Of a stretch of 64,000 bases of DNA, positions 578-58,579 are shown one piece after another; within the stretch, counting starts at the first letter, position 1; each line of letters starts with the position of its first letter. The translations under genes and the position numbers were made by a program. Source of the DNA: Cymodocea nodosa (taxonomy: Eukaryota > Streptophyta > Magnoliopsida > Alismatales > Cymodoceaceae); assembly GCA_036874045.1 (NCBI GenBank), contig CM072340.1:7765001-7829000 (forward strand), given 5' to 3'. A model generated the notes under the pieces. The model was not told the DNA's origin. It worked only from the letters and a program-made list of their open reading frames with translations, and made no database searches.

Positions 578-1077
578 CGTTAAGTTAGAGGCTTAAAGGT
601 TAAAATAGGTCACGTCAGAACTCGTTAAGTTAGTGAGTAAAAGAAAAGACGAACTCGTTAAGTTAGTGTTGTACACGTGGTGAAATTAAAGGTTACGAAT
701 GTTATATTGTATCACATGAGGTGCACATGTTTAACTCGTTAAGTTAAAATAACTAAAACGCGTTGAGTTGCAATATTGAACACTAAGGAACCGCGTTAGG
801 TTAGCGTTATAAAACTTAAGTTATTATTTTTGCACGTGGTAAAATTCTTATTATAAAAACATTTATTTATTACCGGTTTGTTGAGTTATTTGTAACACAA
901 CGGAGATGGTTCATTGAGTTATCATAACACCACGGAGATGGTTCGTTGAGTTAGCGTAACACCACGGACTTAGTTCATTGAGTTAGCTATAGTACTTGTC
1001 ACGTGAGTTGGCACATGAGGAACTCGTTAAGTTAGAAACGTTAAGTTATATATCTACTTGTTTTACTCGTTTAGTTA
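578..1077 (+). promoter_or_regulatory. CGNNNAGTTA array in family A LTR
   Basis: Eight exact plus-strand copies of CGNNNAGTTA start at 578, 623, 655, 737, 944, 1024, 1039 and 1068. The middle triplet is mostly TTA (CGTTAAGTTA), with one TTG and one TTT. Near-matches such as CGTTGAGTTG and CGTTAGGTTA lie between them. Spacing is irregular. CACGTG and CACGTC boxes are interspersed. The array lies upstream of the LTR TATA box at 1303, where enhancer or silencer sites would be. Function is inferred. Confidence 0.7.
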
Positions 1078-1302
1078 ACATCAAAGTAATGACTTCTAAT
1101 TACACTTAATGAAAAATTTTGGACGAGAAAGTTTATTTTGCAGGAAAGTTTTCAGAGATCCAAGATTCATGATTAAAGAAAATTCGAAATGTAAACGTAG
1201 GTCAGAACGTGTGTATTTCGATGAAGGAAAAAGAGAAGACGTGAAGAAGTGGAAGATTGATAGTGATTAAACGTGGAGGATATGCATGAAATGAAGATAC
1301 AA

Positions 1303-1309
1303 TATAAAA
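1303..1309 (+). promoter_or_regulatory. TATA box of family A LTR
   Basis: TATAAAA followed by GGCATAG. The same box is at 14529-14535 in the 5' LTR of Copia-B, where it would start the genomic transcript about 770 bases before gag. Confidence 0.65.
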
Positions 1310-3678: not shown

Positions 3679-5275
3679 AATGCTTAAACTCCACACAAAA
3701 AGATAAATTTTGTTGATGATGTTGTTTACCTCATAGATATTATATACGTATTATAAATATCTAAGTAATATCTAATCTGCTGCATAAGATACTATGTATT
3801 TATTGTAATATTATAGTAGTATCTTATTGATTTTAAGTATTTTGTCAAGTTTAATGGTTTTCAAAATTTTAAGTGGAAGTGTAAATGAAAAACATTAAAT
3901 ACCTCTGAAATCCTGAAATTTTGATTAAGTAATTTTCATTGGATCAATAAAAGCGCATATGATCAAGAATGAGTTTGACTTGATTGATTAAACTTGTAGA
4001 ATAATTTATATGTAAATCATCTTAAACTACTAATCAAAAGAATGAGCTTATTGATAGTGATTCATATTTTCAGTAAAATCATAGACATAAAAATTCTATA
4101 AGATTTGTGTTTTATTGCATCTGTATTAATGGGATACATATATACTGTGTTTAAAATGAAAAGTGCTTACAAAGTAAAAATCTTTGAGAGTTTATTGATC
4201 AGTTTGATCACGAACCTTTTGTACTTGAGCAAATAGGTATGTAAGGATTGTTGTTCTAAAAAAGGACTCTTTAAATCTAGCAACCTAAGGTCCTGATCAG
4301 ACTTGGGATTGTTGATTGAAAGCTCATTACACGGGTACATTAGAAAGCTCTTGTATGATTCAAGCTTTTCAAACTAACTATTAAAGAGAATTATCAATAT
4401 TTACTGTTTTAAAAAGATAAAAGTTGTTTCATTAATTATAGAGATCTTTGAGTCGAATATAGTTTCTACCAATATGACTACTGATTTATTGAATCAATAT
4501 TAGTACTTTTGAAAAAGTTTATTTGAGTTACATTCTTTTATTCTCCTTGAGTTAATCATATTAAGTTTAAAGTTATGTTTTGATTCATATACAGTTGGAG
4601 TTGATTCTTGAGATTATTTGTGATGAATTCAGGATGACAAAAATCTTCTTAAAAGAAATTTAAAGTGTAGCTATAATTAACATCTATTTTATACAAATAT
4701 ATTTTGTATGTTATTGAATATATCTGAAGTATATTTGTAGGGGAAGGAATTACAATGTCCAAAACAGATTAATATAATTCAGAATATAAATCTTGGTTAA
4801 TCTAAGTTTAGTCCTCTTAAGATCTTGATGAAACAATTTAAAAGACAAACAAACTATTTTAGATTCATAAAAAGAGAATATTAGAATAGTTTACAATGTT
4901 CTCAAGATGATCTTATATATGTTAAGTTTTAGCTTGTGTGTTGTCTTCAGAAGGTTTCAGTAGAAAGCATCCGAAACTTGTTTTTGGTAAAGTATACTAA
5001 CTGAATGTTATGTTATGTAAGGTAACGTGTAAAACTACCTCTGGACAGCATTTTACTCGTTAGGTTAGTTAACTCAACGAGTTATGCTTAAATATTTTGG
5101 GTACATTGATTGAATAAACTATATTCAATATTCATTTAAAATCTAAACCTGACTACTATACACATTGAGTTAGTTTCCTAAAACCCTATTTAAACACTTA
5201 TTACACGGGCACTTAGGTTATTCGTAAACTTTGTCTGAAAATCTTTCCCACTTGTTGCTATTACATCCTACAACG
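3679..5275 (+). other. Copia-2 pol-ORF3 spacer with internal promoter-like region
   Basis: The spacer is non-coding and aligns with 20671-22258 of Copia-B. The stretch of about 3770-4760 is also clearly homologous to the 3' region of Gypsy-2 (about 42600-43700) and, inverted, to Gypsy-3 (about 62160-63300). A conserved core at 4195-4380 includes a segment reading GATCACGAACCTTTTGTACT. At 5055-5085 there is a CGTTAGGTTA, TAACTCAACG, CGAGTTA cluster. A TATA-like CTATTTAAAC lies at 5186-5195, about 80 bases before the ORF3 start codon. This suggests that ORF3 has its own promoter. Confidence 0.7.
5186..5195 (+). promoter_or_regulatory. TATA-like box ahead of Copia-2 ORF3
   Basis: CTATTTAAAC, identical in Copia-B at 22168-22177 and at the same distance from the ORF3 ATG. 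A motif cluster lies 110-130 bases upstream. No transcript evidence is available. Confidence 0.4.
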
Positions 5276-7540
5276 ATGGTCTCCAAGTTCTACAAAGGTC
5301 ATGGTAGAGGAAAAGGAAAAGGTAGAGGAGATGGAAAAGGAAAAGAAATAGATAATGATGAAGTTCCACGAGCTTGGTTTAAGAAAATACTTCAAGTGGA
5401 CAAAAGGTTAGCAAAAATTTATAGTGAATACTACTTTCTTGAAGGAATACTGAATGAAGTTAAACTCGAACTTCATAACACTGATGAAAGTATTAAATAC
5501 ATGGGTATTCGAAGCAAGTTTGATAGAGAATACAGAATGAAGTGTGTCGAAATTGCATTTTTGGAATAGTATGCAAAATATATGGAAAAATGTGTAGGTT
5601 CATCAACTAGAATTCCTCAAACACCCATAAACAGTACAAGATTACATGCATTTGAGGAAGAACATAAATCTGCTATTCCTACTCCTTTGTATTCAAAAGA
5701 AAAACAAACAAATATTGTTGTGGATAAAAGAAAAGTTGAAGGTCTTTGAAAGACAGTCGCAATAGAAAGTACCTTAGAAGAATTGAACTAGAAAACTTTT
5801 ATGGAACAATTTCAAAAGAAAACAGCAATACTTGAAGAAGAGAGATTGACTTGTCATAAAAGAAGAAAAGTTAGGAAAATTATGTCTAAGGAAACAAAGT
5901 CTGCTGGAAAAGAAAAATCAGATGAGCATTTATTTCCAAAGGACAATGTATGTCTAGACATTGTTCCTTTTAGTGCATCTAAAAAACTCATCAATTCTGA
6001 ACATACTGAAATTGATGAAGATAGTGAGACTTTATTTTCTCTTGCTAGAAAACTTGAAAAGAAATCCAAGTCAAATATAAGTTCAAGTTTTTCTATTAGT
6101 TTAAGCCCTGATGATGCAAAAATTGAACAATCAAAGCATCAGGCAATTGACATAGAACAAGTTATTGTAGATATAATTCAAAATGTTGAGGTAGTAACTA
6201 GTTCACAGGCTGAATTATCTAGAGTAGTGGATATTGAAAAAGTTAAGACTTCAGAAGAGCTTAATGTTAATCAGCCTTCTTCAAAATCTAAAGAAGCAGA
6301 GTCTGAGAATTCATAGCATGTATCAATGGAGATATCTATTGAACAAAATGAACAATTACAAACAGATACACCAGCTATAGAATTTGTAGAAAAATTGAAC
6401 TCTGACCATTCTATGGAGACTGAACACATGAATGTTGAGCATATTGAAGATGTTCCTTACACTATTGAAGTTGGAGAATCAAGCTTACATACGTAGCTTC
6501 AAGAAAATAATTTCTCAAAGGAACAAAATGACATTCATTTTGAAGAAGAGGTTCCTAAAGATGAATTAAATTTTGAATCAAGGCTTCAGGTATCGCTTTC
6601 TTTGTATGAAGTATTACACATTCAAGGTAATTCAATTCATTTTAGATCTGAGGAAGCATTGTAGAAATACAATAATCTGATTACATGTTAGATTCTGCAT
6701 GCTCGACCAATAAAGTTCAGAAATTTGATGGAGATACGAGATCTATTTGAGTTTCAAGGCTTAATTCAATTCTTGCCAATTGGAACAAAATGGAAACAAT
6801 ATAAAGAGCTCATTGCAGCCTTTTACAGTAATCTGGTCAAGAATGACAATATATTAACAACTCAAATAAATCAACAGGAGTTCACATTATCTCCTGAATT
6901 AATGTTTGAAGTTTTGGGATTAAAAAATGAAGGTGTTGTTGTTACAAATAGATTTGACATGATCAAACAACTGGAATGGGACATCCACTCGCTATCAAAG
7001 ATTCCAGATGTATATAGTGAAATGTGGTTAATGGAAAATCTAAATGTAGAGGCAAGGTTTATTGCAAATATCCTATATGCCAATTTATTTCAAAGAGTTG
7101 GACACAATCTGGAAGTCAACAGAAGTTGTTTATATGCAAATTATGGCCTCCTAAATAGAATTCAAATCAATTGGTTTGATGTTTTCATTTCTCAACTACA
7201 ACATATGAGTTCAAATTTATTTTTTGGTAATGTTGTATGTAGACTCCTCGCAAACCAATTGAATTTATCCGATTGGCCCTCTAAAACAAAAGGCATGAGA
7301 GTTTTTAGTATAAAAGATTTGCAAAAATTCCAAGCCATGCATCAATCTCAACAACAACAACTAGAATGTACATAACAGATACAACCACCAATATAGCCAA
7401 GTTATTCAATTCGAGCAGAACAACAACCCCAACTGCCTCCTTCCCTAGATGATGTGCTTAACGAAATTAGAAATGATATTAGGCATCTAGGAGATAAAAT
7501 ATGTAATGCTATAAGTGATATACTTAGGAGGGATAGATAA
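5276..7540 (+). pseudogene. Copia-2 ORF3, plant transposon protein-like (broken)
   Basis: This is a third ORF in the place where SIRE-type elements carry 'env'. It holds 755 codons from ATG 5276 to TAA 7538 with no frameshift, but with nine earlier in-frame stops (5567, 5747, 5789, 6314, 6494, 6662, 6689, 7373, 7394). Six of the stops can be compared with Copia-B: five are CAG to TAG and one is CGA to TGA. The stop at 6662 is also present in Copia-B. The N-terminus is Gly/Arg/Lys-rich (GHGRGKGKGRG). A basic KRRKVRK patch follows, then an acidic middle. The C-terminal domain has LFEFQGL, FYSNL, VLGLKNEGV and QRVGHN, resembling the Pfam 'putative plant transposon protein' family (PF20167, named from memory). 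I see no signal peptide or membrane segment, so it is not a typical envelope protein. Confidence 0.75.
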
Positions 7541-10810: not shown

Positions 10811-10816
10811 AGTTTT

Positions 10817-13516: not shown

Positions 13517-15094
13517 TGTTGAGTATTTTTTTGATGATGTGTGCTGAATGAAAATAATCATATTTCCTCAATTACTATTGCTTGTGAAAAGAAATTAAAA
13601 TCATCTATTAATACAGAAAAAGCTTACTGATATAAATACTTGTCTGTATTGGATCTGAAGTTAATATCTAATCGTTTCGTTGCATTAATTTCTCATTTAG
13701 CTAAACGTTAAGTTAACGTGTGTTTTTATTGAAAAGCATGATATGTTTTAATGTTATATCTTATGTATCATGAACAGTGCACGTTTAGACAACTCGTTAA
13801 GTTAGAGTTTTGTTTGTATAGAGGTCACGTGAGAACTCGTTAAGTTAGAGGCTTAAAGGTTAAAATAGGTCACGTGATAACTTGTTAAGTTAGTGAGTAA
13901 AAGAAGAGACGAACTTGTTAAGTTAGTGTTATACACGTGGTGAAATTATAAGTTACGAATGTTGTATTGTATCACGTGAGGTGCACATGTTTAACTCGTT
14001 AAGTTAACATAAATAAACGCGTTGAGTTGCTATATTGAACACTAAGGCAACGCGTTAGGTTAGAGTTATAAACTTAAGTTGTTATTTTTTGCACGTGGTA
14101 AAATTCTTATTATAAAAACATTTGTTTATTACTGGTTCGTTGAGTTATCATAACACAATGGAGAAGGTTCGTTGAGATAGCATAACACCATAGACTTAGT
14201 TCGTTGAGTTAGCTACAGTACTTGTCATGTGAAATGGCACATGAGGAACTCATTAAGTTAGAAACGTTAAGTTATATATATACTTGTGTTACTCGTTTAG
14301 TTAACATTAAAGTAACGACTTCTTATTACACTGATGAAAAACTTTTGGACGAGAAAGTTTATTTTGTAGGAAATTTTTCAGAGATCTAAGACTAATGATT
14401 AAAGGAAATTCGAAATATAAACATGGGTTAGAACGTGTGTGTTTCGATGAAGGAAAAAGAAAAGACGTGGAGAAGTGGAAAACTGGTAGTGGTTAAACGT
14501 GAAGGATATGCATGAAATGAAGATACAGTATAAAAGGCATAGAATTCTCGTTGATCAATTTATCCTTGCACACAAAACGAAAAATCTTTTCAAGGATCAA
14601 ACCATCCCTACACACCAAAAGAAAAATCTTTTTCAGGGATCAAAAACACATTCTCGGGGAAAATCTCTCAAGTGGAAGAAAGTTCAGTGAAGCATAAAAA
14701 GGTAAGATTTTCGTCACTTAAGATTTGAAGTATCAGAAGAAAGCAAATTCGGTGAAGCATGAAAAGACAAGATATTCGTCACTGAAGAATTGCTGAAGAA
14801 GAAAAATAAGAAGAAGAAATATCTCAAATAGGGAGAAAAGTTTTAAATTCCGCAAATTAGTTTTCTCTGTTTGTAGTTATGAAATTGTTTAGATGATACA
14901 TGGTATCGAAATATAATTGCATCTACAATTTCTGAGGAGAATTGAATTGTATATTGTAATTGAAACCTTGAATAAAAATGATTTTATGAAAACAATGTCT
15001 CGACTTTTTTTGAGTTTTAAAGTTTCAATTATATTATAGAAAATATTAAAAATACACAATTCACCCCCCTCTTGTGTAGCCATACGATCCTACA
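13517..15094 (+). repeat. 5' LTR of Copia-B
   Basis: 1578 bp, TGTTGAG to GATCCTACA. The motif array occupies about 13790-14310, with many CGTTAAGTTA copies. A TATA box (TATAAAA) is at 14529-14535. CACGTG boxes lie in the array. The end has the family signature CAATTCACCCCCCTCTTGTG followed by TAGCCATACGATCCTACA. Confidence 0.95.
14529..14535 (+). promoter_or_regulatory. TATA box of Copia-B 5' LTR
   Basis: CAGTATAAAAGGCATAG, about 220 bases downstream of the last motifs of the array. It is conserved in all copies of this LTR that include the region. Confidence 0.65.
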
Positions 15095-15096
15095 AG

Positions 15097-15108
15097 TGGT
15101 ATCAGAGC
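15097..15108 (+). other. Copia-B primer binding site (tRNA-iMet)
   Basis: TGGTATCAGAGC, the standard plant copia site complementary to initiator tRNA-Met. It lies two bases after the LTR end. Confidence 0.95.
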
Positions 15109-15294
15109 TTTGTGAATAATCTTTGATATAAAATCGATACCAACTTATTTAATATCATTGCTTATTCTACCTTCCTTGTTTTTAAACGGAAATTAATATC
15201 TGAGCATACGTTTAACTCTATTGATTTAAGGCTCAAGTTGTTTTAAAGTTTTTAGACTATTTAAAATCAAATAGGTTGAAAAATCTAAGGTAAG

Positions 15295-16569
15295 ATGGCT
15301 ACTGGAAATGGTAATTTTTCTTTATATGAAGGCCAAAATCTTAATCGTCCTCCTTTATTTGATGGAATACATTTTGAATTTTGGAAATATAGGAAGACTG
15401 TTTTTCTTCAAAGTATAGATCATAAGTTGTGGTTCATGATTTCTAAATCATATACTCCGTTAACTACTCCTTATAATACTTGGACAATTACTGAAAAAGA
15501 AAATGAAACTCTGAATGCTAAGGGCTTAAATATTTTATTTTGTGCATTGAGTTATGAGCAGTTCAGTAAAGTGTCGGCATATAAATTTGCTTATGAGGTG
15601 TGGCATGCATTAGAAGTTTCACATGAAGGTACTTCTCAAGTTAAAGAGACAAAAATAAACATGTTGATTCATAAGTATGAACTCTTTAAGATGCATGAAG
15701 ACGAAAATATTTCTGAGATGTTTTCCAGATTTCTTGATATCATAAACTCTTTAAAATGTTTAGGAAAGAATTTTGAACAGAAGGATTTGGTGAGGAAAAT
15801 TCTTAGATCCCTAAGTTCTAAATGGTCTCAGAAAGTAACATCAATTGAGGAATCACGAGATTTAAATGTTTATACTATGAATGAACTTATAGGAAATTTA
15901 ACAACTTATGAAGTTCAATTAAATGAATCACTAAGTCACAACAAACTAAAAATGAAGAAAGAAATAGCCTTCGAAATTAATTCAGATTCTGATATATCTA
16001 CTGATTCTGACGAGGATTTGATTTTGCTGACTAGGAAATTCAAGAAAGCATGGAAAGCTAGGAAACAGCAAAGGAACAAAAATGATAAACCCTCAACGTC
16101 AAAATCATTGAATAACAAGAATTCTTCATCTAAAAAGTATGTATGTTACAACTGTACGAAACCTGGACATCTTTCTCCAGATTGTCCTATGAGGAAAAAT
16201 GAAAAGCAAAGTAGGACAAATCAGAAGAAGACGGCTCAGAAAACTCAGAAAAAGTTTTACAAGAAAAAGGCTTTGAAGGTCACTTGGGATGACACGTCTG
16301 AAGAGTTTGAATCTGAGGAATCAGCATCAAAATCTTCACATTCAGAAGGAGAACAAGAGTTAGAAGACGTTGCTCATGTGTGCTTCATGGCAGATGAGTC
16401 TGAGGTAATATCTGATCCTGAAAGTCATTCAAATTTCAACTTTGATGAATTATTATGTGCTTATCATGCATTATTACAAAAACTTAAAGTATGTAAACTG
16501 GAAAATAAGAATATTAGAAAATCTTCATCCATTATGGAAGAAGAAAATTGTTTCCTGTCTACTACTTGA
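15295..16569 (+). CDS. gag: Copia-B Gag
   Basis: A 424-residue capsid/nucleocapsid precursor. The N-terminus reads RPPLFDGIHFEFWKYR, the usual start of plant copia Gag, and a UBN2-like capsid region follows (KYELFKMHEDENISEMFSRF, LVRKILRSL). A CX2CX4HX4C zinc knuckle (CYNCTKPGHLSPDC) lies at about residues 283-296. The C-terminal part contains VTWDD and is acidic. ATG 15295 is the first start after the primer site. The frame closes at TGA 16567-16569 but stays open beyond it in the same frame into pol. The TGA may be a CGA to TGA mutation or a read-through stop. Confidence 0.85.
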   Translation: MATGNGNFSLYEGQNLNRPPLFDGIHFEFWKYRKTVFLQSIDHKLWFMISKSYTPLTTPYNTWTITEKENETLNAKGLNILFCALSYEQFSKVSAYKFAYEVWHALEVSHEGTSQVKETKINMLIHKYELFKMHEDENISEMFSRFLDIINSLKCLGKNFEQKDLVRKILRSLSSKWSQKVTSIEESRDLNVYTMNELIGNLTTYEVQLNESLSHNKLKMKKEIAFEINSDSDISTDSDEDLILLTRKFKKAWKARKQQRNKNDKPSTSKSLNNKNSSSKKYVCYNCTKPGHLSPDCPMRKNEKQSRTNQKKTAQKTQKKFYKKKALKVTWDDTSEEFESEESASKSSHSEGEQELEDVAHVCFMADESEVISDPESHSNFNFDELLCAYHALLQKLKVCKLENKNIRKSSSIMEEENCFLSTT

Positions 16570-19500
16570 GAAAAGTTTAAATGTGATAATGAAAATCATG
16601 CTAGAGATTTGCAAAAATTTAGATTTAATGAATGTATCTTGCATGAACAAATACATAATATAAATGGTGAAAAATTAAAGATAGAATCTGAAAATGAAAT
16701 GTTGAGAAACAATATAAATAAACTTCAATTAGAGATAGATAAATTAAAACTAAGAGAGCAAGATTTAAATTCTACCATTGAGAAATGGAATTTAAGTCAA
16801 ACTAAGTTAGACAAACTAACTAGTAACCCTGCGGTGTCTTATAAATTTGGCTTAGGATTTGATTATCCTGAATATCCTCAATCTCAAGCCAATAAAGGAT
16901 TTATTAGTTGCAGTTCAAGTAAATCTAAGACTAAAATTCCTTTTATTATGAAACAAGGTAATAAATATGTAGAAGTAGGTACTTCAAGGGATGAATCATG
17001 TAGTAATAATATAAATCAATGTGATTTGTCAAATTGTACTTCTAACATGACTATAAATGTTTCTAAAAATCTTGTTTCTTGTTCTGGAAATTCAGTTTCT
17101 AATGTTTCTAAAATTTCAGACAATTGTAGTAAACTGAAAATTCAGAAACCTAAGCATGTAATTCAATACACTAGTATTAGACCAAATACTCATTCTACAT
17201 GTGATAAAACAAAAAATTCTTGTGTAGAAAAAGATTTTGTATGTACAAAAAATTTTAATACAAGTACAAAATCTTGGTATGAACTTACTGAAATGTATAA
17301 GCATGACCAAAATAAATTAACAACTAATAAAAATATGTTTGGCCTTGATTATACTACATCTGAAAACAAAAAGAATAATTGCAAAAGCAATAATGCTATA
17401 TGTGAGTATGAAGCTAATGATAAATCAATAGTACTTACAACTAATAAGAATATAAATGATAATGTTAAACTATTTTTAAACAAAAGAAGAAATATGCGTT
17501 TAATGAACTTGGTCCTCAACAACATTGGGTACCAAGAAAAAGTTTTTCTTAATTTGTTGCAAGAGGAAACAACATCAAAATGGATCTTGGACAGTGGAGC
17601 GTCGAGTCACATGACCGGACAAAAAAGTCTATTACAAAATTTTACAAATACCATGAAAGGAAGTGTAACATTTGGAAACAAAAGCAAAGATAAAATCATA
17701 GGTATGAGCAATGTTCAAATAACTCCTACTTGTGTTATTTCGAATGTACTATATGTAGAAAACCTAAGATTTAATTTGCTAAGTGTCATAAAACTAACTG
17801 AAAATGGATATTATATAGTGTTTGAAGATAATGTATGCAAAATAATTGATAAAAATACAGATGAAATTAAGTTTATTGCTAAAAGAAAAGGTTCTGTATG
17901 TATTTTATCTTTACCTTCTCGTGCAGTTGATTTAAATTCATGTTTGCTAGCTGAAACTAGTGATGCATATCTATGGCATAGAAGGATTGGGCATATAAAT
18001 ATGAGACTATTACATAAACTATATAGAAAACATTTAGTGAGAGGTTTACCAAAGATTAAATACTCAAAGAACTTTATGTGTGATGCATATGAGTTAGGTA
18101 AACTTCACAAAAACTCTTTTAAATCCAAAACTGATATTTCAAGCAAGAGAGTCTTAGAACTTATACATATGGATCTATTTGGACCAACAAGAATCATGAG
18201 TCTTGGTGGTAAACGATATATATTTGTTTTAGTAGATGACTTCTCTAGATACACTTGGGTATATTTTGTAGCATCTAAGACAGAAGTTTTTGAAAAATTT
18301 AAAATGTTTTGCAATTTTGTTCAAAATGAGAAAAGTGTCTCTATTCAAAAACTTAGGAGTGATCATGGAACTGAATTTGATAATGATCAAATGGATAACT
18401 ATTGTAATGAGCATGGCATTGATCACAGATTTTCTTTTCCAAGAGCACCGTGTCAAAATGGTGTTGTTGAGAGAAAGAATAGATCACTTCAAGAAATGGC
18501 CAGAACTATGTTGAATGAACATAAGTTACCTCAAAATCTTTGGACTGAAGCAGTAAATACAGCTTGTTATGTTATTAACAGAAGTCATTTAAGACCTTAT
18601 GTTAATAAAACTCCTTTTGAAATTATGTTTATTAGGGTTCCAAAAATTTCCTATATGAAACCATTTGGCTGCAAGTGTTTTATTCTTAATACTAAGGATA
18701 AAAGGGATAAATTTCAAGCCAAATCGGATGAAGGAATTTTTGTAGGTTACTCTACTAGAAGTAAAGCCTATAGAGTATATAACAAGACCTCTAGGACTAT
18801 TGAAGAAACCCTCCATGTAAGCTTCAATGAAAATTCTCTTAGAGAATCTCAATCTAAAGCTGATAATGATGATATGATCAATTTTCCAAATGAGTTAGAG
18901 ATCAATAGAGAGATTGATGATTTATCTGAGAAAATCAAAAATATGAACTTAAATGATCAAACTAATGATGAAAGTGATGAACTTTCAGATGTTGATGAGA
19001 ATATTGAGGAAAATCAGAGAAATTGGCGTTATTCTTCATCACATCTCATTACTCAAGTCATTGGTAATATTAATGAGGGAGTTAAAACTAGAGCCTCAGT
19101 AAATTTAAATAGTATGTGTATGTTTGTTTCTATGGTGGAACCAAGGAATATACAAGAAGCATTATCTGAAGAAAATTGGATAGTGGCAATGCAAGAAGAA
19201 CTAAATCAATTCATCAGAAATGATGTATGGGAATTAGTCTCTCCACCAGAAAATCAGTCCATAATAGGTACAAAGTGGATCTTTAGAAACAAAACTAACA
19301 AAACTGGTCAAATTATAAGGAATAAAGCTAGATTAGTTGCACAATGGTATACACAGGAAGAAGGATTAGATTATGATAAAACATTTGCTCCTGTGGCTAG
19401 GTTAGAAAGTATTAGAATATTATTGGCCTATGCTTGTTATATGGATTTTAAATTATATCAAATGGATGTAAAGAGTGCATTTCTAAATGGTTTAATTAAT

Positions 19501-38550: not shown

Positions 38551-39979
38551 TTGTATAGTTCGTCTACTTGTACTTGTATATATTTGTATGAAAAATATCT
38601 GATTTGATTGCACTGTAATTTATTCATATGAATGAATATATGTTTTTCAGATATATTTTTCATGCGTGTTTAGAATGGATGAACTATATTGAATGTTATA
38701 TAATTTGTGGAACATTATGCATGAATGTTTAAAAAGATTTACAGTTTGCTGAATGATAGGATTAAATAATAGATGATTGAAAATATCTACATGCTACAAG
38801 GTAAAATGTAAATTCTACATAACATGAAATGAACTGCAAGTTAAATATTTATATAATGTTCAGATTTAAACAAATTTTGATTAGAATGCTGCATTAATGA
38901 CATGTATTTAACTTTATTTCAGTTAGCAGAGTGTAGGAGAAAGAAAAAAAAAAAACATAGAAGTACTTACGAGGAATAGACTTAGAGGTTGCCAAGTGTT
39001 AACTCAACGAAGTAAGTTCGTTGAGTTAAACTTAACTCCATGAGGCAGTAATATAATATAAGGTCACTCCGTTGATAGTTAAACTTTCGGATAGTTAACG
39101 TCTCATTTTTGTTGAATACTTTATGTTAAAAACTCGTATAATTAAGTTATCTGCACGTGTGTTTTTAATGTTTTAAGTTGTCACGTGTTTTCCAGGTGCA
39201 TTTAGTAATTAAAAATCGAATAGTTAGATAACTGTTCGAGTTTTGATATGCATGGATAGATAACTGTTCAAGTTTTATAAAAGGACTAACGAACAGATAA
39301 ATTTCTTTGTTAAGTCACGTGTTTTGCAGGTGCTAAAACTTGAAGAGTTAAAGGATAAGTGTTTGAGTTTTTACGAGACTTAAAGGATAAATGTTCGACT
39401 AAATCGAAGTTAGTCTGTGGAGTTAGCAATAGTATCTGACGCTGTTCCGTTGAGTTATCTGTAACTCAATGAGGTTAGTTCGTGGATTAAGCAGAACGGT
39501 TATTCTTTTAACCACAAACGAAACTTCGTCGGCTTAGCAGTTACCAAAATTTGAAATTAGTAGTGGTACACGTACCCATAAAAATAGGAACCACACTGCA
39601 CGTTACAAGACACGTTCTTGCAACGAGATTTATTTACTTTATGGATGTGCATTATATATATAGAACAGAATGTTATTTACGAGTTACCAGCACTTTTGAA
39701 AGAAAGGAGAATGCATTGGGGAACTAGAAGGAGAAGCAGCTGATTCAACTTCATCCATCAACAAATATTTACTAAATGGAAAGCTTCAAATTGGTATGTA
39801 ATTAATCGTCTGCTATTTTATTTATGAGCATATGGACTTGTTCTCTTAGCACTAAATGATTAGTAAGAACACCTACCTAGGAGTATTCAACACAGAGGCG
39901 TACTGAAACATTTTCTGAACTGGACTTTAACGAAATCCTTAGGGGTGTAGCTAACCTTTCTTTAAAAGAGAATGTAGAT
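38551..39979 (+). promoter_or_regulatory. Gypsy-2 ORF3-gag spacer with motif array and TATA box
   Basis: An AT-rich 3' untranslated-like stretch (38551-38995) is followed by a motif array (about 38998-39530) with CGTTGAGTTA and TAACTCAACG types, interrupted by a family C LTR fragment. A TATA-like ATTATATATATAGAAC is at 39651-39666, then a leader of about 310 bases to the gag ATG. A GTATGT...CTTAG pair at 39794-39849 recalls an intron but would be only 56 bases. Gypsy-1 has the same layout at 57498-58640. Confidence 0.5.
39074..39418 (+). repeat. Family C LTR fragment inside the gypsy gag promoter
   Basis: About 345 bp matching the family C LTR from about 31190 to 31515, including its CGGATAGTTA motifs and TATAAAA. 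In Gypsy-1 the same place (about 58030-58050) has only GTTATCTGTAACTTAACGA. The fragment has no LTR ends and no target duplication. It replaces about 20 bases and is flanked by short shared words (CGTTGA, CGAAGTTAG), which suggests template switching or gene conversion. Confidence 0.75.
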
Positions 39980-46791: not shown

Positions 46792-49407
46792 ATGTCAAGA
46801 CGTGGAAGAGGACATGGTAGAATGACAAAAGTGCAGAAAAGAGAGTTGGAAATTCAGAAAATACAAAGTGAAATCAACGACATCTACTCCAGGTACACTT
46901 TTTCAAACGAAGTACTACACAAAATAAGAAAAGCTGTTCAAGATGAGAAAAATTTCTATTGGAAATTTATTTGAAATTATGCTGAAACACGTTTTAGTCT
47001 AAAACAGACTGAACTTTCCGCATTGCATTTATGGAAAAGAAATTTACAACCTAACCCTGCGGTTGTAAGTTTTGGACATGTACTAGAGACATCGGTACAG
47101 TCTATCACCTACTATAGAAAGAAGTGGGGACCAATGATCGAAAATGCAAACAAGGAATTACAATCCTTGTATTCCCAACATCATTTTCCCCTAGCTGTTT
47201 TAGATAATATTAAATAGTGTATAGATGAACAAAAAACTACCATTAGGAAAATGGGCCTTTGAAGTGAAAGACAAAGAGTTTATCAACTCAAAATGGCAGA
47301 GGTTGAGAGCTTAAAACTCTATATTCCATTATTACAACCTAAGCATCATGGTGAAGGACCATCAAGACCCTAGGTGCCTTTAACAAGAGAAATTAAGACA
47401 ATTTTAGAACCTCCTGAACAACCTGAAACACTGCAGACATATAGTCAGAAAAAGAAAAAGACAATTGAATATTTTGGACTAACTGTAGGTGCACAAGGAA
47501 TATTGCAGCAAAAAGAAGAATCAGTGAAAAATGGAAAACTATGCTCCATTGCAGAAGCTGGACAGACATTTTTGTCAGGAATCCCAGCAGATGTGACAAA
47601 TATTAGCTTACAAGCATATACTCTAAGGTATTGTGTCACATTAGTGCATAATGTATCTTTTCATACAATGGACAGTTTTTTACACAATGCTGCAAGCACA
47701 CATTCTTTTCCTATGGAAAGAGAGCATGTAGGAAATTTTGATGATACACATACAGATGATATCCAATTTGATGATATTTTTGATGACATAGACATTGAGT
47801 CTATGAATTTTGAAGATATTTCATCTAAAGAGGAATGTACAGATATTCTTCCTCTATCTTGAACAAAGACTTTTGAATTTTGATACAGTTGCTTATACTA
47901 CACTTTATATATATGGTTATGTCTGTTATAGTATATAGTATACTTGTTGATAAATGTATATAATCAACAATATACACAGTTACAAATAGAATATGATACT
48001 ACCAATGTCTTACATATACAAATTTCAGAAATACAGGATGATTCTATTCCACAAACAGATATAGAACATTCTTTCATACAAAGACAGTTGTATAGATCAA
48101 ATATAGATATACATGTTGCTGATATACAGATTGCTACAGAGACTGTTATTACTGAAATGTTTCCAGAAGAACAAACAGAAGAAATTTAGCAGATTATTGA
48201 TACGACAATAACAGATATTTTAGACATTTATACTAGTTTTGATGGCAATTCCACCAGTTCTGAAAGATCTGAAAATATAGATGCTGCTGATAATATTGAA
48301 ACAAGTCCCAGATCAGAACACCATGACAGGAAAATACCTAATCCTGAACAGAGTTTAGATGAACATACACTATTATGGTTCAGAAATAATTCCTATTATG
48401 ACAAATTTCAGACATATAAAACTTTTACAGTTTTATATTGAAGACTAGTTAAGTTTGAAGGGATGGCACACATACGAGAACTGTTTGAATTTCAAGGCTT
48501 GTTGACTCTACTTCCACAACAGCCAGGCCATCTTGCTATACTTGAACTTATTAGTTGTTTTTACTCAAACTTAACAATGGAAGAAGGTATTCCTGTTTCT
48601 AATATACAAAACAATGACATATATTTAACTCTAGATTTACTTCATCAGGTACTTAGTCTAAAAAATGGAGGAGTTAAATTATCAAAAAGAAAATAGGTTT
48701 ATCGATTGGGATGGGATATTACAAGTTTAGCCAAAGATCCAACTGCCAACAAACCATTGACATTACTAAATGACTTAAATGGCCAAGCACATTTTATTAC
48801 AAAAATATTGCATGCTACATTGTTTCAAAGGTTTGGTCATGGGGCAAAAGTTGGCAGATGTTGTCTTTATGCTACATATGCATTAATAAACCATATACAG
48901 GTGAACTAGTATGATATTTTTGTTTCTCATATCTTACATTTGCAGAGTAAATTATTTTATGTTGATACGATTTTGAGAATTGTGGCAAGTCAAACAGATA
49001 TTACACCTTGGCCACAGAAAAGATTAATGTCAAGATCTTTCTCTTCAAAGGAACTCCAAAAATACCAGGAAGTAGATACACCTATCCTCAAACGACAACA
49101 ACAACAACAGGATCGGCAAACACAGTCACAGCCACAACAGCAACAATCCACACAATTTACAGAAACACAGCAACATACAGATATACAACAAGATATACAT
49201 ACAGATATACAACAAGGTATACATACAGAAATACATACAGGTATAGATACAGACATACATACTGAATTTTTACAGCAACCATCACAAGTTTCTCAAAATG
49301 ATTTAGATCAAGCATTACTTGATTAGATAAACAGAGTTAGTACAGAAATTGCAAAGAAAATTTCAGATACTCTGATTGATATTTTTCGAAGACAAAGAGG
49401 CTTGTGA
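46792..49407 (+). pseudogene. Copia-C ORF3, plant transposon protein-like (broken)
   Basis: 872 codons in a single frame from ATG 46792 to TGA 49405, with no frameshift and about seven or more internal stops (46972 TGA, 47215 TAG, 47860 TGA, 48187 TAG, 48439 TGA and others). The N-terminus MSRRGRGHGR is basic, as in family A. A motif of the type INDIYSRYTFSNEVLHKI occurs twice (near 46880 and 47155), whereas family A has it once. The C-terminal domain has MAHIRELFEFQGL, LISCFYSNL, VLSLKNGGV and QRFGHG. A Gln-rich tail with ACATACAGATATACAACAAG repeats lies at 49100-49260. It ends in a helix IAKKISDTLIDIF, like Copia-B. Confidence 0.75.
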
Positions 49408-49731: not shown

Positions 49732-50308
49732 TGTTAGGTATTTAATTTTGATGATATATGCTTTATTAACGTATTTAAATAAGTCTACATAATAATCTCT
49801 AAGTATATTTTTCTAAGTATAATAGTTAACAGATTATCGGAAAGTTTCATTTTTATGTCGGATAAATTAAAGATTTCTGAAGAGTTAGATTTGCAATAGT
49901 TAAACTTTCGAATAGTTAATGTTTCGGATAGTTAAACTTTTGGATAGTTAACGTCTCATTTTTGTCGAATACTTTATGTTAAAAACTCATATAGTTAAGT
50001 TATCTACACGTGTGTTTTTAATGTTTTAAGTTGTCACATGTTTTCCATGTGCGTTCGGTAATGAAAAATTGAATAGTTAGATAACTGTTCGAGTTTTTAT
50101 ATGCATAGATAGATAACTGTTCGAGTTTTATAAAAGGACTAACGAACAGATAAGTTTCTTTGTTTAGTCACATGTTTTGCAGGTGCAAAAACTCGAAGAG
50201 TTAAAGGATAAGTGTTCGAGTTTTTACAAGACTTAAAGGATAAATGTTCGACTAAATCAAAGACTTAGAAGATATTCTATAAGACTCCAGGAAGATAAAG
50301 TTTCGATG
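49732..50308 (+). repeat. 3' LTR of Copia-C, left part
   Basis: Starts TGTTAGGTATTTAATTTTG after the purine tract and matches the 5' LTR at 31010. It is interrupted after TTTCGATG by solo LTR D and continues at 52051. CGATG at 50304-50308 is the left target duplication. Confidence 0.95.
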
Positions 50309-52045
50309 TGTTGAGTATTTTGTTTTGATGATGTGTGTTGAATGAAAATAATCATATTTGCTCAATTACTATTGCTTGTGAAAAGAAATGAAAATCATCA
50401 ATTAATACAGAAAAAGCTTACTAATATAAATACTTGTCTGTATTGGATCTAAAATTATACTAAGTTAATAACTAGTCATTTCATTGCATTAATTTCTCAT
50501 TTAACTAAACGTTAAGTTAACATGTGTTTTTATTGAAAAGCATGATATGTTTTAAAGTTATATCTTATGTATCATGAACAGTGCACGTTTAGACAACTCG
50601 TTAAGTTAGAGTTTTGTTTGTATAGAGGTCACGTGACAACTCGTTAAGTTAGAGGCTTAAAGGTTAAAATAGGTCACGTGATAACTCGTTAAGTTAGTAA
50701 GTAAAAGAAGAGACGAACTCGTTAAGTTAGTGTTATACACGTGGTGATATTATAAGTTACGAATGTTGTATTGTATCACGTGAGGTGCACATGTTTAACT
50801 CGTTAAGTTAACATAACTAAACGCATTGAATTGCTATATTGAACACTAAGGCAACGCGTTAGGTTAGCATTATAAACTTAAGTTGTTATTTTTGCACATG
50901 GTAAAATTCTTATTATAAAAACATTTGTTTATTATTGAATCAGTGAGTTAAAGCTTTTTTCGGAGACTTATAGTCGTAACTATCCGAAAGGTAACTTAAG
51001 TCATGTTTTCAGGTCTTGACACGTGTCTCACTAGTTTTATAATATAAAGAGTTTTTCGGTGACTTACATCCGTAACTATCCGAAACTTAAACTGTTTTCG
51101 GTGAGTTATCGTTTAACCTTCCGAAAGAAAGGTTAAGCTGGTTCGTTGAGTTAGCATAACACCCGGACTTAGTTCGTTGAGTTAGCTACAGTACTTGTCA
51201 CGTGTAATGGCACATGAGGAACTCGTTAAGTTATATATATATAGTTGTGTTACTCGTTTAGATAACATTAAAGTAATGACTTCTTATTACACTGTTGAAA
51301 AATTTTTGGACGAGAAAGTTTATTTTGCAGGAAATTTTTCAAAGATCTAGGACTGATGATTAAAGAAAATTCAAAATATAAACGTGGGTTAGAACGTGTG
51401 TGTTTGTTTCGATGAAGGAAAAAGAAAAGACGTGGAGAAGTAGAAAACTGGTAGTGGTTAAACGTGAAGGATATGCATAAAATGAAGATACAGTATAAAA
51501 GCATAGAATTCTCGTTAATCAAACCATCCTTGCACACAAAAAGAAAAATCTTTTCAAGGATCAAACCATCCCTACACACCAAAAGAAAAATCCTTTTCAG
51601 GGATCAAAAACACCTCTTTGGGCAAAATCTCTCAAGTGGAAGAAAATTCAGTGAAGCATAAAAAGATAAGATTTTCGTCACTGAAGATTTGAAGTATCAG
51701 AAGAAAGCAAATTCGGTGAAGCATAAAAAGACAAGATATTCGTCACTAAAGAATTGCTGAAGAAGAAAGATCTCAAATATGGAGAAATGTTTTAAATTCC
51801 GTAAATTAGTTTTCTCTGTTTGTAGTTATGAAATTGTATAGATGAAACATGGTATCAAAATATAATTGCATCTACAATTTCTGAGGAGAATTGAATTATA
51901 TATTGTAATTGAAACCTTGAATAAAAATGATTTTATGAAAACAATGTCTCGACTTGTTTTTTGAGTTTTAAAGTTTCAATTATAATTTAGAAAATATTAA
52001 AAATACACAATTCACCCCCCTCTTGTGTAGCCATACGATCCTACA
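50309..52045 (+). repeat. Solo LTR D (family A), recombinant
   Basis: 1737 bp, TGTTGAG to GATCCTACA, with exact duplication CGATG (50304-50308 and 52046-52050) and no internal region, so it is a solo LTR left by LTR-LTR recombination. Compared with other family A LTRs it carries an extra segment of about 200 bp at 50937-51139 holding motifs of the other type (TAACTATCCG at 50977 and 51073, CGGTGAGTTA at 51099). That segment resembles family G LTR sequence near 44130-44240. Confidence 0.95.
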
Positions 52046-52050
52046 CGATG

Positions 52051-54563: not shown

Positions 54564-55275
54564 TAAGAAATTTTCTATGTACTATTTAAAATAAAAAAAA
54601 ACTTAGTTAAAAAAATTAGTCACGGTTCAACTGACAAAAGTTATCGGTTTGATCGAACATATAAAAAAAAAAAAATTGTTGCAGTTCAATCGATAGGATT
54701 CATCAGTCAAAACTGGAACAAAAAACATAAAAAATATCTATATATTATATTAAGTAAAATGTCAGTTTTACCGAAGATAGTATCGGTTAAATCGGTAAAA
54801 AAAAAAGTATTTAATTTTGGTTCGATTGAGGAATATAATGGTTTGACCAAAATTCTAAGAGGTTGAATTAATTAAGAGTCGGTTAAACAGAAAATTCTTC
54901 AGTCTTGACCGAAGTAAAATTATTATTATAAGTATTTTTATTAGTTATAACTTTATGGGAAGTCCGTTGAGTTACACTTAACGAACTTACTCCGTTGAGT
55001 CTAGGATAAGACAACAAACTTACTCTGTTGAGTTAACTATAACTCAACGGAGTACTATAGTTAAGTCCACAAACTTAGTCCGTGGAGTTAACCCTAACTC
55101 CACGAAGCAATAAGAGAGAGAGCGAGAGTTTGCGTGGGAAAATGACCCGATTACCCGTTTAAAACTTTGGGCTTATTTATACTAAAACTTAGATTTGGGG
55201 GCATTATCCGCAGAATCATTTAGAACTTATAACAGTAGAGATCAGAGCGATTCCATTTCGTTCCATTACTCCACG
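54564..55275 (+). promoter_or_regulatory. Gypsy-1 pol-ORF3 gap: CGGTT repeats, motif array, TATA-like box
   Basis: CGGTT/AACCG-type repeats at about 54620-54920 (GTCACGGTTCAAC, TTATCGGTTTGA, TTTTACCGAAGATAG, TATCGGTTAAATCGG). The array follows: CGTTGAGTTA 54965, TAACTCAACG 55040, CGTGGAGTTA 55081, TAACTCCACG 55095. An AGAGAGAGAGCGAGAG run comes next, then TTATTTATACTAAA near 55165-55180, and ORF3 ATG 55276. In Gypsy-2 the part between two CTCCACGA-like words is deleted together with the TATA-like box. Confidence 0.55.
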
Positions 55276-57497
55276 ATGACGAAGATGATGCCAGAGTTCT
55301 GGGAGGAAGCAATTGATATGACAAGATTTCTCAAAGAATCTGAAGAATGGCATACGAGACAGAAGATCAGAAATACAACACAGGAAAAAGAACTCGAAAA
55401 GGTAGAATCTGACATTTTCTACTAGAGAAAGGTTTTAGTAGATTTAGACATAAAAATACCCTAGATTATGGAAACGAGAATTAAAGTAGCTGCAGAAGTT
55501 GCATTAAATAAAGAGAGAAAAATCATGCCACATAATGAAGTTGCCCTAGAATTGATCCAACGTAAGTCCCGACTATGGTTTAAAAGATGCATTGGTGGAC
55601 ATGCTCAGTGGTCAATCTAGGAGCAAAAAGGAAAGGAAATGAAGAACGTGCAATTGAAGAACAAGAGGAACCAACTGTTGAAAGACTTGTCCCTAAGGCA
55701 TAGCAACTAGGACCTTTAGTTCTGCCAATAGAGCTTTTACAGAGAGTAACATTTGCTTGGCTGAGAACTGAAGAAGAGGATAAAGAGTTTGCCAGCTTGG
55801 TCAAAATAGGAAAAGACCAAGGGGATGATGAGCAAATGGCTATGGCTAAGGCACATATTTTGTATGATGCCATGAAGAAAAGAAGGGCCGAAGAAAAGTT
55901 TAAGGCCCAATATAAGATTAAGGTGGAGCAACACCAAGCAGCTAGATCAAAAGTTAAAAGAGAACCTAAAGCTGGTCCTTCGAGACCAGTAATTACAGAA
56001 AAAGTTAAACAGGAAGAGCCAGTACTTGTGGCTCGAGGGCCTATAGAGCCTATTTTAGTAGATTTAATCTTAGAAGAGGAAGAGGAATATCAGGCACAGT
56101 TAATTAGAAGAAGGAAAGGAAAAGAGATAGTGCCTAAACATCAAAAAGAGATTAAACCTGAGCTAATAATATCAGTAAGGCCTACAAAGCCAATTTTTGT
56201 AAGCTTGCTATCGAATTTGAGGAGGAGCAACAGCAACAGCAAGAGCAAAGAGAAGAAGAAAAATAGGCTGAAACTAGTCTGCAGCAAGTTGATTAGGGCA
56301 GAAGTTGATTTGCCCGTAACTCCATCCCAATCTGCCATTGAATCAAAAAGAACAATGACAATGCAAATTGGTAGTCAGGAGGAAAAAGAAGAAGAAACTG
56401 AACAAAGAGCTGAACAAGAGCATATAAAACAACAAGGAAATGTCTTAACAGATTCCACAAAAGAGCATGAGACTCTTTAGCAAATTTTAGAAAGAATTAA
56501 AGATAGAAGAGTGGAGAGTTCTATCGGCTCTCCACCATAGACAGAAGTAGAAGCAAAAGGGCTGGAATCTCCGGGTCATTTTCAACAAAGTCAAGTTCAA
56601 CACATGGAAGAGGAAATTCAAGAACAAACCCCTCTAGAGCAACAAATTCAACTTCTTGACTCGACTAAAGCAACAGTTCTGAATGAAGTACACTTTTGGA
56701 GTTAATAAGCATACAATAAATACCAAGAGATTAGGGGTTATGATGTTATTTACAGTAGACTAGTAAACTGGGACGGTATGTAGGAAATCAAAGAATTATT
56801 TGAGTTCCAAGGTCTACTGCAATTTATTTCTCAACAGAAAGGGCATGCAATATATGAAAATTTAGTGCCCTATTTCTATGCAAATTTGAGAGGACAATTA
56901 ATTTCCAACATGGAGCAAGCTGATGTACAGATAACACTAGAGCTTTTTCACAACATTTTAGGATTGAGAAGTGAAGGAAAAGAAATTTTGGAAAGTACAA
57001 CTGCCATTGAGTGGACAGAACATGAAATCAACGACAGTTTAGCTATGAATCCTAGTGTGCCATTATTAAACAGACTAAAGCACTTAAATGGTAAAGCACA
57101 CATGGTAGCTAACATTTTGATTAAAAATGTCTACAAATGACAAGGTCATGATATTGAACTAAGTCAATTTGTCAAATGGGCCACATATGTAGTTGTGAAT
57201 AGAATTCAAATCAACTAGTGTCAAGTCTTCCTATCCAAGTTAAGAGAAGCAAAGAAGAAATTATTTTATGGAGATCTGATTCCACTATTGATGGTAGATA
57301 GTATTGATTTCACGAAATGGGCATCCAAAAGGATTAGATCAAGAGCCATTTCAATGAAAGAATATAGAAATTATGCTACTGTTGAGATTGCTAAACCTTC
57401 TAGAGGCATTATAAGGGTTGTTGAGCGGATAAATCAATTAGAGCAACAACTAGAAAAACTCTAGAAGGAAGTAGATGAACTTAGGAAGAAAGATTAA
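55276..57497 (+). pseudogene. Gypsy-1 ORF3, plant transposon protein-like (broken)
   Basis: Homologous to Gypsy-2 ORF3. The frame from ATG 55276 is lost between about 55580 and 55700 by small length changes. It is then open as frame 55797-56480 and recovers to TAA 57495. This is the only one of the five ORF3 copies with a frameshift. The C-terminal domain is clear: EIKELFEFQGL, LVPYFYANL, HNILGLRSEG, EHEINDSLAMNPSVPLLNRL, then KKLFYGDLIPLL. A closing Leu-rich helix follows. The acidic, Lys/Arg-rich middle includes RRRKGKEIV. Confidence 0.75.
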
Positions 57498-58579
57498 ATT
57501 GTATTATTCGTCTACTTATACTTGTATTAAAAATATCTGATTGATTGTAATGTAAAACAATATTTATATAAATGAAGGTTTTTCAGTTGTTTTTGCATTT
57601 GTGTTTGAGAATGACTGATGTAATTGAGAATTATATTGAATATTATATAGCTATTTAAAGATGTGCAAGACTGTTTAAAAGATTTACAAATTTTATGAAT
57701 GACAGGATAAAATGCATGATGATTGGTTAATGCTTGAATATATCTACATACTGGAAAGTAAAATGTAAAACTCTGCATAAAAGGAAATGAATTGTAAGTT
57801 AAATATACATATAATGTTCAGATTTAAATGAATTTAAGTTAGAACATCACATTAATGACATGTATTTAACTTTATTCAAGTTTACAAAATGTAGAGGAAA
57901 AATATATAAAAGTTAATACGGAGAGTGAGTATTAGAAAAAATTTTGCTAAGTTTTAACTCAACGAACTTAGTCCGTTGAGTTACACTTAACTCCATGAGG
58001 TCAATACTAATATATAGGTCACTCCGTTGAGTTATCTGTAACTTAACGAAGTTAGTCCGTGGAGTTAGCAAATAGTAACCTAAGCTAGTTCGTTGAGTTA
58101 TTTGTAACTCAACGAGGTTAGTTTGTGGATTAAGCTGAACGGTTATTTTTTTTCAGCCACGAACGAAACTTCGTGGGTTTGGCGATTACTAAAATTTGAA
58201 ATTAGAAGTAGAACACGTAACGTTAAAAATAGGAACTATACTACACATTACAAGACACGTTCTTGCAACGAGATTCATTTACTTTATGGATGTCCATTAT
58301 AAATATAAAACAGAATGTTATTTACGAGTTACCAGCACTTAAGGAAAGAAAAGCATTTCGTTGGGGAACTGGAAGGAGAAGCAGTTGATTCTACTTCATC
58401 CGTCAACCACCATTTACCAAAAACAAAGCTTCAGACTGGTATGTAATTAATCTTCTACTATCTTATTTTATGATTAAGAGTTTATGAGCACATGGATTTG
58501 TTCTCCTAGCACTAAATGATTAGTAAGAACACCTACACAGGATTATTCAACACAGAGGTGTATTGAAATATTTTCTGAA
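57498..58579 (+). promoter_or_regulatory. Gypsy-1 ORF3-gag spacer with motif array and TATA box
   Basis: The array at 57955-58114 holds eight exact motifs: TAACTCAACG 57955, CGTTGAGTTA 57974 and 58025, TAACTTAACG 58039, CGTGGAGTTA 58058, CGTTGAGTTA 58091 and TAACTCAACG 58105, plus related words. A TATA-like ATTATAAATATAAAAC lies near 58300, about 330 bases before the gag core. A possible small intron (GTATGT at 58439, CTCCTAG at 58503-58509, 71 bases) lies in the leader. Confidence 0.5.

What the first reader, a model, noticed from the sequence alone, without database searches (positions are those of the whole stretch)
578..58114. A shared degenerate 10-mer, CGNNNAGTTA, forms dense arrays in copia and gypsy elements of one nest
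Seen: exact CGNNNAGTTA (or TAACTNNNCG) clusters in family A LTRs (eight at 578-1077), family C LTRs (31156, 31203, 31266, 31348), family G LTRs (43966, 44010, 44032, 44116, 44130) and internal gypsy gaps (four at 54965-55104, eight at 57955-58114). The fixed ends are the same everywhere, while the middle triplet is family-typical: TTA in family A, GAT/AAG/AAT/GTG in families C and G LTRs, TTG/TGG in gypsy internal arrays. Seven fixed bases should occur well under once per 500 bp by chance. The Gypsy-0 LTR has only one in 2.26 kb, which serves as an internal control. Inference: recognition sites for a DNA-binding protein with family-specific variants, either host (a MYB-like factor is conceivable) or element-encoded.
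Basis: partly seen in the sequence, partly recalled or inferred. Interest (0 to 1): 0.88.

Follow-up and report, generated by a model that had tools for sequence, protein, structure and literature searches.

The report
Retrotransposon promoter arrays and partner gene
Two unrelated kinds of plant retrotransposon carry dense clusters of the same short DNA word outside their genes and also share a third gene of unknown function, which suggests, without yet proving it, that the gene's product recognises the word and controls the elements.

Summary
The motif is real: 124 exact CGNNNAGTTA sites in 64 kb against about 3 expected. It ranks first among over-represented two-block 7-mers. It is not one tandem repeat copied: flanks fall into about 35 groups, and between diverged copies the fixed bases are kept while the spacer is not. 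I found none in 25.8 kb of gag, pol and ORF3 compartments. Sites are half-sites: 69 of 124 have a tail-to-tail partner, CGNNNAGTTA-N2..6-TAACTNNNCG.

New here: the three array-bearing families that I could delimit (copia A, copia C, one gypsy) each encode a third ORF after pol with a homologous C-terminal domain, weakly Pfam PF20167, known from Athila extra ORFs, with dN/dS about 0.16. Arrays lie upstream of ORF3 and in the LTR, or in front of gag. Best explanation: operator sites for the element-encoded ORF3 protein, a VANC-like cis/trans system in LTR retrotransposons. Binding is inferred; a host factor is the main rival.

The parts
13517..15094 (+). 5' LTR of copia A2, 8 exact sites; TSD GTATG; followed by TGGTATCAGAGC (initiator-Met primer site, recalled)
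   Evidence: ends read by eye
15289..20667 (+). gag (PF14223, zinc knuckle) and pol (integrase core, RVT_2) of copia A2; last ORF 19936-20667 judged RNase H by eye (no Pfam hit); no site in 15095-20667
21979..22153 (.). three sites (21979, 22051, 22144) in the pol-ORF3 spacer of copia A2, upstream of ORF3 (first ATG at 22259)
22199..24304 (+). ORF3 of copia A2 (one in-frame stop); basic N-terminus; C-terminal domain 23648-24304
25023..26646 (+). 3' LTR of copia A2, 13 exact sites
5237..7321 (+). ORF3 of copia A1 (broken); one site (5070) upstream; C-domain 6665-7321
50309..52045 (+). solo family A LTR (TSD CGATG), 14 exact sites, with a C-spacer-type stretch at about 50958-51083
31010..32179 (+). 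5' LTR of copia C, 4 exact sites
46792..49056 (+). ORF3 of copia C, broken by several stops; C-domain 48403-49056; N-terminus MSRRGRGHGRM
49732..50308 (+). first part of the 3' LTR of copia C, 5 exact sites (rest at about 52048-52680, none; element TSD AGATT)
36228..36333 (.). gypsy g1 array between pol and ORF3, three exact sites
36334..38514 (+). gypsy g1 ORF3 (broken), C-domain 37762-38415; no site
39000..39520 (.). gypsy g1 array upstream of a gag ORF (39881-40612); six exact sites, three of them in a copia C LTR fragment at 39074-39409
54965..55104 (.). gypsy g2 array between pol and ORF3, four exact sites
55276..57461 (+). gypsy g2 ORF3 (broken), C-domain 56718-57362; no site
57955..58114 (.). 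gypsy g2 array after ORF3 and before a TATA-like word and a gag-like stretch, seven exact sites, two steps of 33 bp

Best explanation
CGNNNAGTTA is a half-site of a sequence-specific DNA-binding protein. Pairs of half-sites face each other (CGNNNAGTTA-N2..6-TAACTNNNCG), so the protein probably binds as a dimer or in multiples. Arrays sit in two places of each element: in the LTR (copia) or in front of a gag ORF (gypsy), and upstream of a third gene, ORF3, that follows pol. The most likely reader is the ORF3 product itself: made from its own promoter, nuclear, binding both arrays and keeping both promoters active, most plausibly by counteracting silencing as VANC does for VANDAL transposons, or by direct activation. 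Shown: the motif, its conservation between diverged copies, its pairing, its absence from coding compartments, and the shared, selected ORF3 domain in the three array-bearing families I could delimit. Inferred: that the array regions are promoters, that ORF3 has its own transcript and is nuclear, that it binds the site, and that it activates or protects rather than represses.
For: Motif: 124 sites against about 3, first among two-block 7-mers. Flanks fall into 35 groups. Pairs under 80% identity: fixed bases kept 0.94, spacer 0.70, right flank 0.71, left flank 0.80 (57 comparisons); all seven fixed bases intact in 36 of 65 comparisons (22 of 38 distinct sites at least once) against 784 of 4470 neighbouring windows with the same mask; motif CG kept in 44 of 61, other CG in 72 of 214. 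69 of 124 exact sites have a tail-to-tail partner (up to 2 mismatches) at offsets 12-16, none at 17-21, 9-18 in each further 5-bp bin up to 61. 0 sites in 12 gag, pol and ORF3 compartments, 25,752 bp. ORF3 C-domain: tblastn within the window from copia A to C E 5e-51, to gypsy 4e-37 and 5e-32; PF20167 matched at the same place in A1, A2 and g1; profile match to seven Cuscuta/Colocasia PF20167 proteins, E 9e-9. dN/dS of the domain 0.165 (A1/A2) and 0.161 (g1/g2), pol parts 0.22-0.38. An array or a few sites lie upstream of each ORF3 copy. Basic N-termini in copia A and C.
Against: No binding data. Fold unresolved: mean pLDDT 38.8, no solved relative. PF20167 scores of 23-30 bits are under the curated 45 and copia C gave no hit (g2 not scanned). 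Spacers do not follow ORF3 relatedness: A and gypsy share TTG although their domains are about 30% identical, while A and C (about 40%) differ. Three families from one nest, and no array-free family with a readable ORF3 region as a negative control. Copia A has only 3 and 1 exact sites upstream of ORF3. A TATA-like word was found in seven of nine regions scanned but not in the A2 spacer or the g2 spacer, and in the g1 spacer it precedes the array. In close copies motif CG is kept no better than other CG (71 of 93 against 239 of 312 at 90% and more). VANC's domain and motifs are absent. In Cuscuta PF20167 occurs in gag-bearing proteins, which could mean another role. Comparisons overlap and are not independent.
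Confidence: 0.5

Rival explanations
1. A host transcription factor (for example MYB-like, recognising TAACT with a CG three bases on) binds the sites, and unrelated retrotransposons have converged on it or swapped the enhancer module; the shared ORF3 has another role.
For: LTRs that use host stress factors are well known (recalled; Tto1 and MYB). Five family A LTR copies hold 23 CACGTG in 7.0 kb (no shuffle control), and 19 of their 46 sites have CACRTG within 40 bp upstream, 14 of 28 such distances being 6-7 bp. Array stretches look moved between families (39074-39409; 50958-51083).
Against: The consensus is not a standard plant MYB core as I recall it (YAACKG), since a CG after three free bases is required. 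Sites recur upstream of ORF3 in three families. Gypsy arrays hold no CACRTG, so the G-box is not part of the shared system. Family-typical spacers are easier to explain with diverging element-encoded readers (inference).
Confidence: 0.33
2. The sites serve repression: ORF3 as a self-limiting repressor, or a host repressor or methylation reader, binds them.
For: Placement and pairing data fit equally; paired operators upstream of its own gene are also the layout of a self-repressor.
Against: Sites are kept between lineages, which elements should lose if a host repressor were the only reader. This does not touch a self-repressor.
Confidence: 0.1
3. The palindromic pairs work as RNA or single-stranded hairpins (10-bp stem, 2-6 nt loop), not as protein-binding DNA.
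For: Many pairs could fold; the first spacer position is more alike in partners (0.89) than in other neighbours (0.67).
Against: The second and third spacer positions could pair in only 60% and 62% of 55 pairs; fixed positions in 76-100%, though these are raised by the choice of pairs with at most one mismatch per half. Spacers are identical in 17 of 55 pairs, and 55 of 124 exact sites have no tail partner within two mismatches.
Confidence: 0.03
4. Plain descent of one tandem repeat, or a composition artefact.
For: Some arrays are tandem (units of 42, 45, 33 bp), and some of the 35 flank groups are surely related (for instance 36228 and 54965).
Against: Flank diversity, fixed bases kept over spacer in diverged pairs, exact gap dependence.
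Confidence: 0.04

Closest known systems
VANC proteins and their target motif arrays in Arabidopsis VANDAL transposons (Hosaka 2017, PMC5735166; passages read)
   Same: Short motif in arrays in non-coding parts of the element, motif variants between families, element-encoded extra protein with conserved domains and variable regions.
   Different: VANDALs are Mutator-type DNA transposons (recalled); motifs YAGTATTAY and AGTTGTMC (0 and 1 in this window); VANC has DUF1985, which ORF3 did not match; here LTR retrotransposons of two superfamilies share one motif.
Athila-type 3' extra ORF / PF20167 Transposase_32 (PMC11728184; passages read)
   Same: Sense ORF downstream of pol with a PF20167-like domain; nuclear localisation predicted there for the sunflower protein.
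   Different: No target sequence in the passages read; here the domain is also in copia elements and goes with CGNNNAGTTA arrays; scores here are below Pfam's cut-off.
Retand elements: antisense TRP28 ORF and tandem repeats between pol and 3' LTR (PMC11963269; abstract and passages read)
   Same: Extra ORF with predicted DNA binding plus repeat arrays in the same region; regulatory role suggested.
   Different: Antisense ORF, other domain (PF04195), repeats called family-specific.
LTR enhancers read by host factors (Tto1 and MYB, ONSEN and heat-shock factors; recalled, nothing read)
   Same: Short repeated motif in an LTR promoter.
   Different: As recalled, not tied to an element-encoded partner or to a second array in front of an extra gene.

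Membership tests
VANC/VANDAL anti-silencing system | Short motif in arrays in non-coding regions of the element | tested here: met
VANC/VANDAL anti-silencing system | Element-encoded extra protein beside the transposition genes | tested here: met
   ORF3 in three families
VANC/VANDAL anti-silencing system | DUF1985 domain in that protein | tested here: not met
   Pfam scans of the pieces given show no DUF1985, only weak PF20167 and chance-level rows; g2 C-domain not scanned
VANC/VANDAL anti-silencing system | VANC motifs YAGTATTAY or AGTTGTMC | tested here: not met
   0 and 1 match in 64 kb
VANC/VANDAL anti-silencing system | Protein binds the motif and removes DNA methylation | not testable with these tools
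   needs bench data
PF20167 Transposase_32 extra-ORF family | Match above Pfam's gathering score (45 bits) | tested here: not met
   23.3, 26.7 and 29.8 bits for A2, A1, g1; none for copia C
PF20167 Transposase_32 extra-ORF family | Homology to accepted members over the domain | tested here: met
   hhalign to seven Cuscuta/Colocasia PF20167 proteins, probability 95.7, E 9.4e-9, 186 columns
PF20167 Transposase_32 extra-ORF family | Sense ORF between pol and 3' LTR | tested here: met
   copia A2; for gypsy the 3' LTR was not delimited
Host MYB site array | Canonical MYB core with host binding | tested here: inconclusive
   TAACT is shared; TAACTG occurs 38 times, YAACGG 19 times in the window, without a shuffle control; binding not testable

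The most novel reading that the evidence does not exclude
LTR retrotransposons of both superfamilies share an exchangeable cis/trans module: a PF20167-like ORF3 protein and arrays of its CGNNNAGTTA half-sites in the LTR or gag leader and in front of ORF3. It works as a sequence-specific anti-silencing or self-activation system with family-specific spacer codes. This would be the retrotransposon counterpart of VANC and would give the Athila-type extra ORF a function.
Probability: 0.32. Interest if true: 0.9.

Novelty: new variant of a known kind. Interest (0 to 1): 0.74.

Why it matters
Extra ORFs of plant LTR retrotransposons are widespread, and the passages I read call their functions unknown. 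A concrete target word, with paired half-sites and a place in front of the extra gene itself, turns 'what does this ORF do' into a direct binding test. If right, sequence-specific self-protection or self-activation is not a VANDAL peculiarity but also exists in LTR retrotransposons and can be shared between superfamilies.

Tried and rejected
RNA hairpin reading: disfavoured. Tandem-repeat descent: rejected for the set as a whole. Rfam at gathering scores and tRNAs: none. VANC motifs: 0 and 1. Structure of the ORF3 C-domain: one AlphaFold job, mean pLDDT 38.8, not used, so no fold search was made. Solved structures by profile: one row, E 0.25. NCBIfam: only chance-level rows. Homologous proteins: ORF3 C-domain, 46 candidates, none at 0.001; ORF3 alignment, 4482 candidates, none at 0.01; copia gag 233 hits, best 120 listed, best one 40% identical; the named ones seen in the list are plants, many have no name, so I take the host to be a plant that I cannot name. 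IMG/VR contigs: no match to the array pattern; 70 and 19 pattern matches for ORF3 and gag, none confirmed. Literature (open-licence PMC only): no paper found that ties PF20167 to a DNA target. One search found the 10-mers in 64 papers, 20 listed, none of those on retrotransposons by title.

I could not settle why a gag ORF follows ORF3 and the second array in both gypsy copies, nor delimit the gypsy LTRs.

Full report
OBSERVATION. The window holds 124 exact CGNNNAGTTA sites, 85 on the + strand and 39 on the - strand. Ten order-2 Markov sequences of the same length hold 1-4, mean 2.9. The 630 distinct orders of the seven fixed letters in the same 2-3-5 layout, the motif included, average 6.3, the next best having 37; other gaps from 0 to 11 give 0-14. 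Among two-block 7-mers seen at least 25 times, with gaps 0-8, this one ranks first by excess (124 against 3.0).

NOT ONE REPEAT COPIED. Grouping the sites by their 20+20 flanking bases (single linkage, above the maximum of 3000 shuffled comparisons) leaves 35 groups, 18 of them single sites. This is approximate: some split groups are surely homologous, and partner half-sites in the flanks join others. In pairs of copies under 80% identical the seven fixed bases match in 0.94, the three spacer bases in 0.70, the right flank in 0.71 and the left flank in 0.80 (57 comparisons). All seven fixed bases are intact in 36 of 65 comparisons, covering 38 distinct sites of which 22 are intact at least once, against 784 of 4470 control windows with the same mask within 60 bp. 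The motif's CG is kept in 44 of 61 and other CG in 72 of 214. These comparisons overlap and are not independent. In close copies the contrast turns round: fixed 0.935 and spacer 0.959 at 80-90% identity, 0.945 and 0.975 at 90% and more, motif CG kept in 88 of 129 and 71 of 93, other CG in 370 of 589 and 239 of 312. The commonest one-base departures from the motif are C>T (35) and G>A (33) at its CG. I read this as decay of dead, methylated copies after insertion; the window is CpG-depleted (observed/expected 0.50). Kept between lineages and lost in dead copies is what a working site of active elements should show.

GRAMMAR. With up to one mismatch per half there are 55 tail-to-tail pairs at offsets 12-16 (25 at 14, a 4-bp gap); five simulated sequences average 0.4 over those offsets. 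69 of 124 exact sites have such a partner with up to two mismatches, none at offsets 17-21, and 9-18 in each further 5-bp bin up to 61. Head-to-head pairs favour offsets 19, 26 and 8 (16, 10 and 10 pairs; 0.2, 0 and 1.0 in simulations). Seven same-strand pairs are 33 bp apart, four in gypsy-type arrays and three in family A LTRs. The second and third spacer positions of the two halves could base-pair in 60% and 62% of the 55 pairs, the first in 95%, the fixed ones in 76-100% (raised by the way pairs were chosen); the spacers are identical in 17 of 55. That speaks for two protein half-sites more than for an RNA stem.

PLACE. One of 124 exact sites (41260) lies in 21 of the 22 ORFs of 150 aa or more, 18.2 kb (one overlapping minus-strand ORF was left out). 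In twelve gag, pol and ORF3 compartments that I drew, 25,752 bp, there is none. LTR copies, partial ones included, hold 3-14; the copia C pol-ORF3 spacer 26; those of copia A2 and A1 3 and 1; the four gypsy arrays 3, 6, 4 and 7. 120 sites could be put in a group; four (10240, 41226, 41241, 41260) could not.

ANATOMY. Copia A2 looks like a full element: LTR 13517-15094, TGGTATCAGAGC, gag and pol, ORF3 22199-24304, polypurine tract, LTR 25023-26646, TSD GTATG (ends read by eye). Copia C runs from an LTR at 31010 to one ending near 52680 with TSD AGATT, is packed with insertions, and has ORF3 from an ATG at 46792 to 49056. Two gypsy copies (RNase H and H2C2 integrase domains in g2) have the order pol, array, ORF3, array, gag ORF.

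THE SHARED GENE. The C-terminal domain of copia A ORF3 finds four other places in the window: the second A copy, copia C (41%, E 5e-51) and both gypsy copies (31% and 32%, E 4e-37 and 5e-32) (alignment). PF20167, 'putative plant transposon protein', matches A2 (E 7e-5), A1 (6e-6) and g1 (7e-7), below its curated score, and not copia C; g2 was not scanned. Profile comparison with seven PF20167 proteins of Cuscuta and Colocasia gives probability 95.7, E 9e-9 over 186 columns. dN/dS of the domain is 0.165 between A1 and A2 and 0.161 between g1 and g2; other parts of ORF3 0.53 (470 codons) and 0.80 (155 codons); pol parts 0.22-0.38 (codons with stops skipped, drift after insertion included). So the domain was under selection in two superfamilies while the rest changed faster, as the passages I read of PMC5735166 say of VANC. 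Both copia ORF3 start with a basic stretch.

MECHANISM. Each of the three families has sites in front of ORF3 and a second array, in the LTR (copia) or before gag (gypsy). That these are promoters is inferred: a TATA-like word occurs in seven of nine regions looked at, without a control, and is missing in the A2 and g2 spacers. The economical reading is that the ORF3 protein binds the arrays as a dimer and acts on both transcripts in the manner of VANC. I put it at one half. The main alternative, a host factor, gains support from G-boxes beside family A sites (23 CACGTG in 7.0 kb; 19 of 46 sites with CACRTG within 40 bp), but gypsy arrays have none, so they are not part of the common system. 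A self-repressor would fit the layout as well. A binding test and a reporter would decide; no tool here can replace them.

KNOWN OR NEW. PF20167 appears in one paper of the library, PMC11728184, of which I read passages: an Athila extra ORF in sunflower with predicted nuclear localisation and no known function. PMC11963269 (abstract and passages) proposes DNA binding for a different, antisense ORF of Retand elements. VANC (passages) is the one experimentally shown element-encoded reader of element motif arrays that I found. A motif and an extra gene shared by copia and gypsy elements was not found described in the searches listed under Tried and rejected.

LIMITS. One 64-kb nest of one unnamed plant; three families; overlapping comparisons; no structure; no genome-wide count because the genome service did not answer in 16 tries.

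Noticed in passing
43739-44996: 620-nt arms, 93% complementary, 18 nt apart, inside the copia C pol-ORF3 spacer; a transcript across it would be a long hairpin and possible small-RNA source.
   Followed up: partly
39074-39409 and 50958-51083: Array stretches look moved between families: a copia C LTR fragment sits inside a gypsy array, and a family A solo LTR carries a stretch 73% identical to the C spacer.
   Followed up: partly
36334-40612 and 55276-58786: In both gypsy copies a gag ORF or its start follows ORF3 and the second array, as if elements were joined in tandem through one LTR; not resolved.
   Followed up: partly
family A LTRs, e.g. 25328-25444: CACGTG or CACATG lies within 40 bp before 19 of 46 family A LTR sites, often 6-7 bp away; no CACRTG in gypsy arrays.
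   Followed up: partly
36063-36149 and about 54765-54790: Another short inverted word (ACCGAAACATAGTATCGGTTA-like) is repeated before the first gypsy array.
   Followed up: no
P0092, P0099, P0104, P0109, P0113, P0115 (Cuscuta) and P0040 (Colocasia): Predicted plant proteins that join copia gag to a PF20167 domain, perhaps non-autonomous elements or gene-model fusions.
   Followed up: partly
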